Source: Bathymodiolus brooksi (lineage: Eukaryota; Mollusca; Bivalvia; Mytilida; Modiolidae). From it: a stretch of 64,000 nt of DNA. The notes beneath the pieces are model-generated. The model made no database searches. It was not told where the DNA came from and saw only the letters and a program-made list of their open reading frames with translations. Made by a program: the position numbers and the translations under genes. The stretch covers positions 56,810,646 to 56,874,645 of the forward strand of contig OY804582.1 of NCBI GenBank assembly GCA_963680875.1. Reading direction: 5' to 3'. Below are positions 35,940-42,416 of the stretch, piece after piece (position 1 is the first letter of the stretch; every line of letters starts with the position of its first letter).

Positions 35940-35943
35940 TTAA
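35940..35943. repeat. TTAA target-site duplication, left
   Basis: It abuts the left TIR and matches 42413-42416. Confidence 0.8.
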
Positions 35944-36029
35944 AGGGATATTGTCTACCAGCTGCGTAATTTTTTCATACCCAAAATTATTGTCGATTTC
36001 CGTACTGACCTTCATAAAATGAAGATTAA
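35944..36029 (+). repeat. Terminal inverted repeat, left, 86 bp
   Basis: Base-for-base the reverse complement of 42327-42412. A one-base indel ends the identity, after which ACACCGA / CACCGA continues. Confidence 0.95.
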
Positions 36030-36185
36030 ACACCGAATTATTGATGAATACGCTCCGAAACGTTGTTTTTTCTACTGAAAAAGCTGATCATCGTTACCGG
36101 AAGCTAATTAATTATGCACTGACCTGGGCGAGGCCAACTCTATTTATTTATCTATTTTTATGTCAGTAGCCCGGATGCTGCAGCA

Positions 36186-36197
36186 TGGATATTGAGG
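36186..36197 (+). CDS. Possible first coding exon of the P2X7-domain gene
   Basis: ATGGATATTGAG (MDIE) is followed at once by GTAAGT, a strong donor, about 240 bp inside the left TIR. It leaves phase 0, as the exon at 37680 requires. Middle exons could exist between them, since family members usually carry a Cys-rich segment before this domain and none is seen here. This is a weak prediction. Confidence 0.35.
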
Positions 36198-37679
36198 TAA
36201 GTTTCTATAAAAGTTGAGGAAAAAAGCTATTTGCGAATCGATTGTATCTAAAAGACGTAGAATAAATAATTTCTGTATCAGGAATAGATTTTCTTTGATG
36301 AAAACTACATGCCTTAACAGATTCAGCCGATATTTCCACGATAATCATTGAAAACATGCCAGGAGGCACCCTATGGGGACAAGCTCAACTACGTATTTTC
36401 GATCGGAAATTTTTGCCGGCGTTAAAAATAACTAAATTAGTTTTTTTCTTCTTATAAGTTATGAAGTTGTTTCCCGAGATTTTGATACACGTGTTAAATT
36501 AATTTATTTTAGCCAGTTTACCGACAATATGAAAACAGAGACATACATGTAGAACACAGTGAAATACATGTCTGATGAAAACGAATGACGTAGCCAGTGT
36601 TGTTTTATTTGTTAATTGACTGGAATGTTTCAGAGAAATTTGGGCTGGATTAGAAACAAAAGAGACCTTACTTCTAGTTCCACAAGACAGTTGCTGCAAA
36701 ATAATATGGGACTGACCATTTACCTTGAAGGGGGCTACGTCACGTTTTTTCGCCGTAGAAATGTTTTTTTCAGACGCCACAGAAATCATATTTTCTTATT
36801 TTCCGGCGAAGTGCCAATCTAATTAAAACAAGGTGAACTGTGATCTAATGCTCACTTATGATACCCCTGCCACTTCCCATGATATGGGGTACCTATATGA
36901 AGCTTGTGACCAAATACCAGATTTCTGCCATCAATAGTTGTTGAGAAAAATGTGCATATATGTTCAATGTGGATAAAAACCAACTAAGTCGGCAAACAGG
37001 AAGTAGGAATCTGATGGTTCCAAAAACGCTTCCCACGATATGGCATACCTATGTGAAGCTTGTGACCAAATATCAGATTTCTGCCATCAATAGTTGCTGA
37101 GAAAAATGTGACGAAAAATAATTTGGAAGGACGGACGGACAGAGGTAAAACAGTATACCCCCCTCCCCCTTCGGGGACCGGGGGTATAATTAGATCTAAA
37201 ATAGGGAGCAAGCGCGTAGATCTAATTTTAATTAGATTGGCGAAGTGCTGGAATAATTTTTTTTCTTCAAAATTTTGTATATGATTATACTGTGAGAATG
37301 GCAAGTATATGATTATACTGTGAAAATGTCAAGTCAGAATATATTTTTTTCTCCTGTCCAGCCAAATTTTTTTCTTCAAGATTCAGAATCAAAATAATTT
37401 TTAGGAAAAAAAACATAAAATTAAAATTGAATAGCTTGAGGGGTAAATTGATAAAAAAATATTGCAAGACTAAAATGGTTCTTCCATATACCAACAAAAA
37501 ACGAAATAAAACTGTGGTCATAAATAAGACTTTTTTTCATTTCTCTAAACTGAATTTGTGCAAACTATTTCACTTATAATGAATTATATTTCTTTTTTAA
37601 ATAGAGCTCATTTTTCTAGATGAATGTATAACCATCTGTCTTTACTCTGTTTTTATTAAATCTCTTGTCTTTATTACAG
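36198..37679 (+). other. Presumed intron, with repeats
   Basis: It contains a 156-bp-spaced direct repeat (CTTCCCATGATATGG at 36873 and its relative at 37029) ending in a GGACGGACGGACAGAGG run and a hairpin at 37152-37189. I searched by eye for a Cys-rich exon and did not find one. Confidence 0.4.
36870..37190 (+). repeat. Dispersed repeat with terminal GC hairpin
   Basis: GAAGCTTGTGACCAAATA and ATTTCTGCCATCAATAGTTG occur twice. It ends in the hairpin TATACCCCCC ... GGGGGTATA. A relative lies at 39290-39436. Confidence 0.65.
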
Positions 37680-37943
37680 GACTTTGATCGGATTGTCCTT
37701 GATGAGGCAGTGTTGGGGGTTGCTAGAATGTTTCGAGAGGAACTTGTAGTAATGCCCCATGATGAGGATTACAACAGATCCAATAGGTATGCAGCCTACC
37801 GCCAGTATACCATTTGGGCACATGGCCGACTTGGAGCTGGGGTCAGACGTGTGATCCCAAGCTGTTGTACTTGGGAAATTAGGGACAAGTATCCTGATCT
37901 ATATGGACAATACAAGGGTTTCATTCCTAGACGATTTAATTAA
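37680..37943 (+). CDS. Terminal exon encoding a P2X7 C-terminal (ballast)-type domain
   Basis: After the acceptor TTTATTACAG, 87 codons run to TAA at 37941-37943. The residues follow the P2X7 intracellular C-terminal domain pattern: an F..IVLDEAVL helix (2-12), AAYRQYTIWAHGRLGAG (38-54), RRVIPSCCTWEIR (56-68) and YPDLYGQYKGF (71-81). In vertebrates this domain binds zinc and guanine nucleotides at the base of the P2X7 channel. Invertebrate genomes, as I recall, carry it in short proteins unrelated to channels. There is no channel or membrane segment here. The usual upstream Cys-rich half is not visible, so the gene may be incomplete or have an exon I missed. It lies between the TIRs of a TTAA transposon, the most unusual thing about it. 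Confidence 0.72.
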   Translation, partial: DFDRIVLDEAVLGVARMFREELVVMPHDEDYNRSNRYAAYRQYTIWAHGRLGAGVRRVIPSCCTWEIRDKYPDLYGQYKGFIPRRFN

Positions 37944-37993
37944 AACTTGTTCATGAAATATTTTGTATTTTATCCCATATACCCTATAATGAT

Positions 37994-38125
37994 AAAGTTT
38001 ACCACTTGCTTCCCTATGGTCGGTGGTTGTCCGGGTACTCTGGCTTCCTCCACCACTAAAACTGGTCGCCATGATATAGCTGAAATATTGCTGAAAGTGG
38101 TGTTAAAACACCAAAAATAAAAAAT
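37994..38125 (+). mobile_element. SINE, second subfamily, 5'-truncated
   Basis: The tail block (ACCACTAAAACTGGTCGCCA) and core match 13070-13185. It begins 50 bp after the stop codon of the P2X7-type exon. Confidence 0.8.
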
Positions 38126-40205: not shown

Positions 40206-40365
40206 CTAAATCAAAAGTACAAATATCAATCACTACAAAATCACATTTGTCTGAAATTACCAGTTTTTGTAGTAATTTGCCTAAAAAATTTAGATAATTT
40301 TACAAAAACCTGCATGATTTTAACACAGACATGGGCCATCGGTCTACTGTTAAATTCACACACTG

Positions 40366-41700
40366 TGAAACATGCAAATTGCTATGGATCTTCACATTAT
40401 TTCTTAAAAATCTTGTTTATAAATCATACTTACAAGATCCAAACTAAACAAGAGCAAAGCGTGGCGTATCCCCTTGCCTAAAAATTTTACCCGGTGACCT
40501 TGACCTTTGACTTTGAAAATCAATAGGGTTCCAGATTTTCTTAAGGACTAAGTATGTACCAAGTTTGGTCAAAATCCATTGAAGGATGTTGATTCTAGAG
40601 TGTTCACAAGGATGTGACGGACGGACGGTAGCGTTACTATATCCCTTGGCAACTTCGTTGGCGAGGGGATAAAAAGCAGTTCAAATGACAATTCTTTAAA
40701 TAGAAAGCCTTTATATGAAAAATACATATTGATTTCCCTCTATCATGTCTATGTTGATAATTCTAAGATAGTAAAGTATAATTTTGGCTCCCTGAACTAA
40801 AAATTATGTCCAAAATTGTTGAAATGTAGTAAAAAACTAGTTAATGTAATGTTTTTAGAATAGTCAAGAAATAAACTTGGTTTGCATAAGGAAATTGAAA
40901 ACGATTTTCATTTAGTCATAGTCTAAAATATGCAGTTCAGGACATTTCAGTAAAATTTTATAGTCACATATATAGAAAAGTTTCTGAAACTTGCAAATTT
41001 CTATGGATCTTCATATTATGTTTTAAAAACCTTGTTTATGTATCATACTTACAGGATCCAAACTAAAAATGCTACTGAAATGACACTTATTTAAATGGAA
41101 AGCTTTTTATATAAAAGATACATACTGATTTTCCACTATGGTGATAATTCAGACAGGAAGATATAATTTTGGCTCCCATGTTCAAACTTATTGAAAAGTA
41201 CTTTTAACCTTATTTATGTAATGTATTTCCAGTACCCAAGATATAAACTTGTTTGCATAAAGGAATTGAAAATGATTTTCATTTAGCCATGGTCTAAAAT
41301 ATGCATTTTAGGACATTTCTGAAATTTCAGTAAAATTTTGTAGTCATATATAAAAAAAGTTCTGAAACTTGAAAATTTCAATGGATATTCATATCATTTC
41401 TTCAAAACCTTGTTTATAATTATATATTATACTTACAGGATCCAAACTAAAAGTGCAATTGAAATGAAGCTTCTTTAAATAGAAAGCTTTTATTTGAAAA
41501 ATACATACTGATTTTCCATTATAGTGATAATTCGCAGAAAGTAAGGTATATACTTTTGGTTCCCAAAACTAAGTTTCATGTCCAAGTTGTTGAAATTTGA
41601 TAAAATTAAAAGCCTAATTATATCAAAGAAATAAATTTACTTGAATAAAAAGAACTTTATAGGGTTTTCATTAAGCCATGTACAGTTTTAATTCTTGCAT
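40366..41700. repeat. 383-bp tandem triplication inside intron 1 of the minus gene
   Basis: The landmark GATCCAAACTAAA recurs near 40437, 41055 and 41438. The last spacing is 383 bp; the first is 618 bp because of a ~225-bp insertion. Each unit also has CTATGGATCTTCA-type and ATAGAAAGC(C)TTTTAT-type landmarks. Units have diverged noticeably. Confidence 0.8.
40449..40673 (+). mobile_element. 225-bp insertion with CCCCTTGCC/GGCGAGGGG ends
   Basis: It is present in only one of three tandem units, so the two others show the empty site. It starts CAAGAGCAAAGCGTGGCG and ends GTTGGCGAGGGGATAAA. It contains CCTTGACCTTTGAC and GACGGACGGACGG-type text, like other hairpin-ended repeats in this window. 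Confidence 0.75.
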
Positions 41701-41987
41701 TAAAAATGAATTGATTCGATATTTTTTTTTAAATTGATAATAATAAACTGCATTGTCATTGATATCATTTTTGCACTCCCATTTCCCCTTTGCTGGCCTC
41801 TTAAAATTTGTGTTTGTTTACCTCGCAAATACGGCCGTTTTATGCTACTCATTGACAATAATTTGCTGTTGCCAGGTGCAAAATTACATATATTGATTAA
41901 TATCTACCGAAAATGATCATAGGCATCATCATAAATTCATAAAATATGAAAAACGATTGAGAAAAGAAGGCAACATGCTCGGCTTAC

Positions 41988-42079
41988 CTATCAACAATAA
42001 TCAAGCACTTCCTTGAGTTCGCTTCATCCAACGGCACTGGTCCAACTGATCCCCTACATATATCCTGCATTTGTTCCAT
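41988..42079 (-). CDS. Transposon minus-strand gene, exon 1 (start codon)
   Basis: ATG at 42079-42077, about 330 bp inside the right TIR. 30 codons plus 2 bases run to a strong GTAAGC donor at 41987. It encodes MEQMQDICRG, then SVGPVPLDEANSRKCLIIVD. Joined with exons 2-4 (92+105+90+139 bp) the frame stays open for 141 residues, with all three introns in phase 2. No homologue recognised: no THAP, zinc finger or DDE motif. Its position beside the right TIR mirrors the possible + strand start near the left TIR. Confidence 0.6.
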
Positions 42080-42326
42080 TTGGAAGATACTTCACTTCTA
42101 TTCCTCTTTATCTCTGAATCCGTCAAAGTCCGCTTTCTTCCACGCGTTGACAGTTTCTCTTTTGCCCAAGAACCACATGTTGTTTATTGTTTCTAAACAG
42201 TGCGCATGCTCAAGACGTGTTCGCATAGAAGGCCATATGAACAGATTTGAATATTGTCATCCGGACAATAATTCTGATAACGAAAGTTTTGGGTCTTTTT
42301 CGTATCTTTTGCAACATAACTCGGTG

Positions 42327-42412
42327 TTAATCTTCATTTTATGAAGGTCAGTACGGAAATCGACAATAATTTTGGGTATGAAAAAATTACGCAGCTGGTA
42401 GACAATATCCCT
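42327..42412 (-). repeat. Terminal inverted repeat, right, 86 bp
   Basis: Exact reverse complement of 35944-36029. Confidence 0.95.
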
Positions 42413-42416
42413 TTAA
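42413..42416. repeat. TTAA target-site duplication, right
   Basis: Directly follows the right TIR. Confidence 0.8.

What the first reader, a model, noticed from the sequence alone, without database searches (positions are those of the whole stretch)
35940..42416. TTAA-flanked 6.47-kb DNA transposon carrying two convergent spliced genes
Seen: 86 bp of identical terminal inverted repeats starting AGGGATATTGTCTACCAGCT, TTAA on both sides, and inside them a + strand gene and a - strand gene whose predicted starts lie about 240 and 330 bp from the two TIRs and which run towards each other. Known: TTAA duplication marks piggyBac and Kolobok elements. Inference: each TIR region drives one gene. No DDE transposase, THAP domain or piggyBac motif is visible, so either a novel protein set moves it or it is a non-autonomous carrier of host-derived exons.
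Basis: partly seen in the sequence, partly recalled or inferred. Interest (0 to 1): 0.88.

Follow-up and report, generated by a model that had tools for sequence, protein, structure and literature searches.

The report
Gutted Kolobok transposon with P2X7-type gene
This is a young jumping DNA element, one exon of which sits at 150 or more near-identical places in its (likely bivalve) genome; it lacks the catalytic core of its own transposase gene and half of a companion gene related to the tail of the P2X7 receptor, so it would have to be moved by the enzyme of fuller sister copies, one of which was found with an identical end.

Summary
In detail: 35940-42416 is a TTAA-flanked element with perfect 90-nt inverted ends; the end recurs at 39 other scored places in the 2.0-Gb genome. 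It is neither a novel protein set nor captured host exons. The + gene is the first and last exon of KolX, the P2X7 'ballast' protein of Kolobok Kol0 transposons (PF20478, 2.6e-18; PMC9587614). The - gene is the two ends of a Kolobok-type DDE transposase without its catalytic middle. A sister copy, L011, has one identical 90-nt end and the missing parts: open transposase exons with D, D, DxxH, HHCH and E, and a complete 252-aa KolX. Of 43 sequences examined only L011 has those exons. The window family is therefore a recently amplified, predicted non-autonomous derivative that lost whole internal exons from both genes yet stays splice-ready; a database protein from a 617-nt contig is the core-less transposase product already spliced. 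Ordinary in kind; the interest lies in the two-gene exon loss, the burst and the KolX/P2X7 link. A regulatory role for the leftovers is untested.

The parts
35940..36029 (+). left terminal inverted repeat, TTAA plus 86 nt beginning AGGGA
   Evidence: 40 scored genome places
42327..42416 (-). right terminal inverted repeat, identical, ending in TTAA
36185..36196 (+). KolX remnant, first exon (MDIE), donor GTAAGT
   Evidence: same place and same donor in L011 (MDIQ)
37680..37943 (+). KolX remnant, last exon: C-terminal part of P2RX7_C, 87 codons and stop
   Evidence: PF20478 2.6e-18, profile 113-191 of 192; P2X7 chains 5.4e-11
37621..37631 (+). approximate place where L011 has 1.7 kb more, with KolX exons 2 (Arg-rich) and 3 (Cys-rich)
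   Evidence: L011 alignment breaks here; exons at L011 8637-8401 and 7751-7506
41988..42178 (-). transposase remnant, exon 1 (basic N-terminus); frame interrupted in this copy
   Evidence: matches N-termini of transposase relatives; frames
40101..40205 (-). transposase remnant, exon 2, with ATG at 40171
39535..39624 (-). transposase remnant, exon 3 (acidic N-terminal region)
39279..39534 (-). stretch in which the deletion junction of the catalytic exons must lie (similarity to L011 ends at 39278)
   Evidence: missing exons at L011 41-4038 and L051
38644..38929 (-). transposase remnant, last exon; premature TAA ending at 38791 in this family, older stop at 38644
   Evidence: 71 database homologues of the L011 form

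Best explanation
This is a DNA transposon of the Kolobok type (TTAA target, AG...CT ends) that lacks the catalytic exons of its transposase gene and the zinc-binding exons of its KolX gene, so it is predicted to be non-autonomous and is likely moved in trans by the transposase of fuller copies that share its ends. Shown: the paired 90-nt ends and TTAA; many copies; the + gene is the first and last exon of KolX; the - gene is the N-terminal exons and the last exon of a DDE transposase; a sister copy (L011) with one identical end carries the missing exons of both genes, open and with GT-AG borders. Inferred: an L011-type transposase recognises the shared end, cuts at TTAA and re-inserts both kinds of copy; internal deletions removed whole exons from both genes of an ancestor; the shortened form then amplified. 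Because whole internal exons are gone, the leftovers can still be spliced to short open frames (91 aa KolX tail, 99 aa core-less transposase). They are most likely decaying passengers.
Against: Only one core-bearing copy is known, because genome-wide searches for the core did not complete. No empty site. THAP, usual in Kolobok, was not seen in exon 1 or in three relatives. A database search with the N-terminal region found nothing at E <= 0.1 among 75 candidates, so exon 1's assignment rests. The Pfam transposase hits of the L011 part are below the curated cut-offs and no solved structure matches by sequence. Placement in the Kol0 lineage was not tested by a tree.
Confidence: 0.9

Rival explanations
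1. The leftovers are not passengers: the core-less transposase and/or the half-KolX are made as proteins and regulate active copies, in the manner of the KP element of the P family (a repressor made from an internally deleted transposase).
For: Both deletions leave open, splice-compatible frames: - 99 codons in 14 of 15 sequences, + 91 aa in 11 of 15 and 89 aa in one. A spliced core-less product is in the protein database (P0042). KP-like repression by deleted P elements and competition by catalytically dead Kolobok transposases are described or proposed (PMC12393704 passages; PMC6004289 passages).
Against: Exon 1 is in frame with its ATG in 1 of 15 sequences (L010) and is then stopped; 13 of 15 show the same stop, L014 is shifted by a deletion and L016 has lost the motif. 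All 15 share the premature stop in the last exon. Coding parts vary about as much as the rest and few changes give no clear constraint on the KolX exon. Open frames are expected anyway in copies this young.
Confidence: 0.08
2. A non-autonomous carrier of host-derived exons.
For: The + exon does match vertebrate P2X7.
Against: KolX is a transposon protein and P2X7 is held to have taken it from Kolobok, not the reverse (PMC9587614). P2RX7_C has 1,801 first-look candidates in this genome, 150 of 150 scored over the cut-off. The - gene is transposase, and L011 carries both genes in fuller form.
Confidence: 0.01
3. A piggyBac element with a KolX-like C-terminal protein, as reported for a few piggyBac families.
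For: TTAA target; KolX C-terminal part only (PMC9587614 passage).
Against: Ends are AG...CT, not the non-RR ends of piggyBac (distinction). The transposase relatives show DxxH and HHCH and Pfam lists no piggyBac domain for the L011 part or three relatives. L011 has full KolX. The direct genome search for PF13843 did not complete.
Confidence: 0.01

Closest known systems
Kolobok superfamily, Kol0 lineage (transposase + KolX; Kojima and Bao 2022, PMC9587614)
   Same: TTAA, 5'-RR ends, DDE with DxxH and zinc motif before E, KolX as second gene (in L011)
   Different: The window copy lacks the catalytic exons and the Cys-rich KolX exons; no THAP seen; lineage not tested by a tree
T2-MITE / XKol of Xenopus (PMC6004289)
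   Same: Non-autonomous Kolobok-type elements with TTAA and AGGRR ends, HHCH in the transposases
   Different: T2-MITE are described there as MITEs; here 6-9 kb copies keep recognisable ends of both genes
KolobokP of bivalves (PMC9587614)
   Same: Kolobok elements common in bivalves, second gene on the opposite strand
   Different: No long terminal direct repeats were reported by the repeat search here; second gene is KolX, not a His-Me nuclease
KP element of the P family (PMC12393704 passages)
   Same: Amplified internal-deletion derivative whose transposase gene keeps its ends
   Different: Here a second gene is also cut, and exon 1 is out of frame in this family

Membership tests
Kolobok superfamily | TTAA target duplication | tested here: met
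   TTAA at both ends of the window element and of 15 of 15 further copies; empty site not found
Kolobok superfamily | 5'-RR ... YY-3' ends | tested here: met
   AG...CT; criterion from PMC9587614
Kolobok superfamily | DDD/E transposase with C/DxxH and a zinc motif between it and E | tested here: met
   Met in relatives (44-47 of 47 per residue) and in the L011 exons; absent from the window copy itself by deletion
Kolobok superfamily | THAP domain (called usual in PMC6004289; not part of the definition read in PMC9587614) | tested here: not met
   No THAP in window exon 1 or in P0074, P0100, P0079; N-terminal exons of L011 not read
Kol0 lineage | Encodes a transposase and KolX | tested here: met
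   Both in the L011 copy; remnants of both in the window
Kol0 lineage | Transposase branches within Kol0 | not tested
   No reference Kolobok sequences were at hand; no tree made
KolX / P2X7 ballast fold | P2RX7_C domain with zinc-binding cysteines | tested here: met
   L011 KolX PF20478 3e-30 and aligned to P2X7 468-591; the window remnant has only the C-terminal part
piggyBac | piggyBac-type transposase domain and ends | tested here: not met
   Ends are RR; no piggyBac domain; genome search not answered
KP-type repressor | Interrupted transposase that keeps its DNA-binding part in frame | tested here: not met
   Exon 1 in frame with its ATG in 1 of 15 sequences, and stopped there. That exon 1 binds DNA is itself only an inference

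The most novel reading that the evidence does not exclude
The amplified family is a two-gene mini-gene element: clean loss of whole internal exons on both strands leaves two splice-ready micro-proteins, a core-less transposase and a half-ballast KolX, which are made and act in trans on L011-type elements as regulators. This would give a first handle on what KolX does for a transposon, and so on what P2X7 took over.
Probability: 0.08. Interest if true: 0.65.

Novelty: new member of a known kind. Interest (0 to 1): 0.38.

Why it matters
It ties a large, young transposon burst to the family whose KolX protein is held to be the source of the P2X7 receptor tail. One genome offers a copy with full KolX and transposase exons (L011) and derivatives with only the ends of both genes, with the same 90-nt end. 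That pairing would make it directly testable whether KolX, and which half of it, is needed for Kolobok transposition; the papers read here give no function for KolX. For annotation it warns that many 'P2X purinoreceptor 7 intracellular domain' exons in such genomes may be transposon remnants.

Tried and rejected
Inverted duplication instead of transposon: rejected, 39 other scored places carry the end. Host-exon capture and piggyBac: rejected (see rivals). Different cargo between the same ends: the 39 further places sampled match parts of the window element, apart from nested insertions and L011; L032 loses similarity after about 450 bp and L026/L029 are diverged and interrupted; these were not followed. 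A target preference beyond TTAA (ATC/GAT) seemed visible but is an artefact of the query, which began with CATC. Ends 84-90 nt long without a mismatch in copies whose inside differs by about 2-14% per 300 bp suggest constraint, but copies were selected by end identity. Purifying selection within the family: not seen. KolX Cys-rich part inside the window intron: none in 7 ORFs, none by tblastn. N-terminal database search: nothing. Solved structures by sequence for the transposase: none. Empty site: 16 joined flanks against 43 sequences gave only a hit of L019 to its own neighbourhood and L020. Fold search covers mainly residues 241-508 of P0074.

Papers. PMC9587614: parts 1-3 of 6 of the text and passages. 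PMC6004289: passages. PMC12393704: passages. PMC7016195: search listing only. Searches of the held library listed no paper on this family; their listings were read, not all the papers.

Full report
What is there. The window holds an element from 35940 to 42416 with perfect 90-nt inverted ends that include TTAA. The genome is 2.0 Gb in 136 contigs, unnamed; the nearest named transposase relatives are oysters and mussels, so a bivalve is likely. The end matches 93-95 nt of the query at 100% at 40 scored places, the window included, out of 211 first-look candidates. Exon 1 of the - gene is matched at 97-100% at 150 of 150 scored places out of 2,426 candidates. The family is large; its exact copy number is not known.

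Copies. Of twenty 10-kb stretches next to end hits, fifteen hold both ends of a copy, with TTAA at both, 6.0-9.2 kb long. Fourteen of these (L019, with inserts, left out) were aligned with the window: 97.96-99.29% identity to it. The end not picked by the search is identical in 12 of 15. The copies are young.

The + gene. ATG at 36185, MDIE, GTAAGT, then the exon 37680-37943: 91 aa. The exon is positions 113-191 of 192 of P2RX7_C (2.6e-18) and aligns to the cytoplasmic tail of P2X7 (5.4e-11). Kojima and Bao (PMC9587614) report that KolX, the second protein of Kolobok Kol0 elements, is this domain, and argue that P2X7 arose by fusion with it. The frame is open over 91 aa in 11 of 15 sequences, over 89 aa in L022, and broken in L010, L015 and L017.

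The - gene. Four exons with GT-AG borders. P0042, a database protein from a 617-nt contig, is this product already spliced; the contig is shorter than the sum of the introns. From the ATG in exon 2 the frame has 99 codons in 14 of 15 sequences; L016 is shifted. Exon 1 carries the same stop in 13 of 15, a shift in L014 and a lost motif in L016. All 15 share the stop in the last exon, where the more distant copies L011 and L030 read on.

The sister copy. L011 has the same left end, 90 of 90, and on the other strand a complete KolX: exons 9660-9649, 8637-8401, 7751-7506 and from 6900 on, 252 aa, PF20478 3e-30, aligned to P2X7 468-591 through the Cys-rich part. The transposase exons A-E and KolX exons 2-3 are each in 1 of 43 sequences (L011); the last KolX exon is in 31 of 43. 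Nineteen of the 43 are only 2.3 kb long and may not reach these exons; of the 16 copies with both ends, the window included, none has them.

Reading. A Kol0-type Kolobok with converging transposase and KolX genes likely gave rise, by internal deletions in both genes, to a roughly 6.5-kb derivative with unchanged ends, which then amplified, most likely with transposase from L011-type copies. The leftovers are probably passengers: coding parts vary about as much as the rest, and the KolX exon shows no clear constraint. A role in the manner of KP is possible, but exon 1 is out of frame.

Limits. The far end of the L011 copy was not read, no empty site was found, THAP was not seen, the N-terminal database search was empty, and genome-wide searches for transposase copies did not complete.

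Noticed in passing
50457-51010 and 20064-20082: Ends related to this TIR (TTAAAGRGGCATTA.CTAC): an inverted pair 554 bp apart that looks like a small TTAA element, and a single end at 20082 (- strand); 0.02 chance matches expected for the pattern.
   Followed up: partly
genome G000: P2RX7_C has 1,801 first-look candidates, 150 of 150 scored over the cut-off; 22 of the 150 start at profile position 53 or lower (longer KolX frames), the other 128 are C-terminal only.
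   Followed up: no
genome G000, C2:62,043,448-62,059,895: KolX last exon and exon 1 recur three times each at a step of about 7,047 bp, which looks like tandem copies of the element.
   Followed up: no
24688-31767, 43580-46084, 4288-5958, 5996-6758: Long tandem arrays: 29 bp x 245, 36 bp x 69, 114 bp x 14.6 and 66 bp x 11.5.
   Followed up: no
40366-41533: Three diverged repeats of about 380-620 bp step inside the element, in the intron between exons 1 and 2 of the - gene.
   Followed up: no
36010-36024 and the mirror place in the right end: Palindrome CTTCATAAAATGAAG inside the 90-nt end, a possible binding site.
   Followed up: no
L013 4414-8214, L026 4644-9998: Copies of the element with nested retroelements: a LINE-like frame of 1,267 aa and Gypsy-like frames; families named by recall, not by a search.
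   Followed up: no
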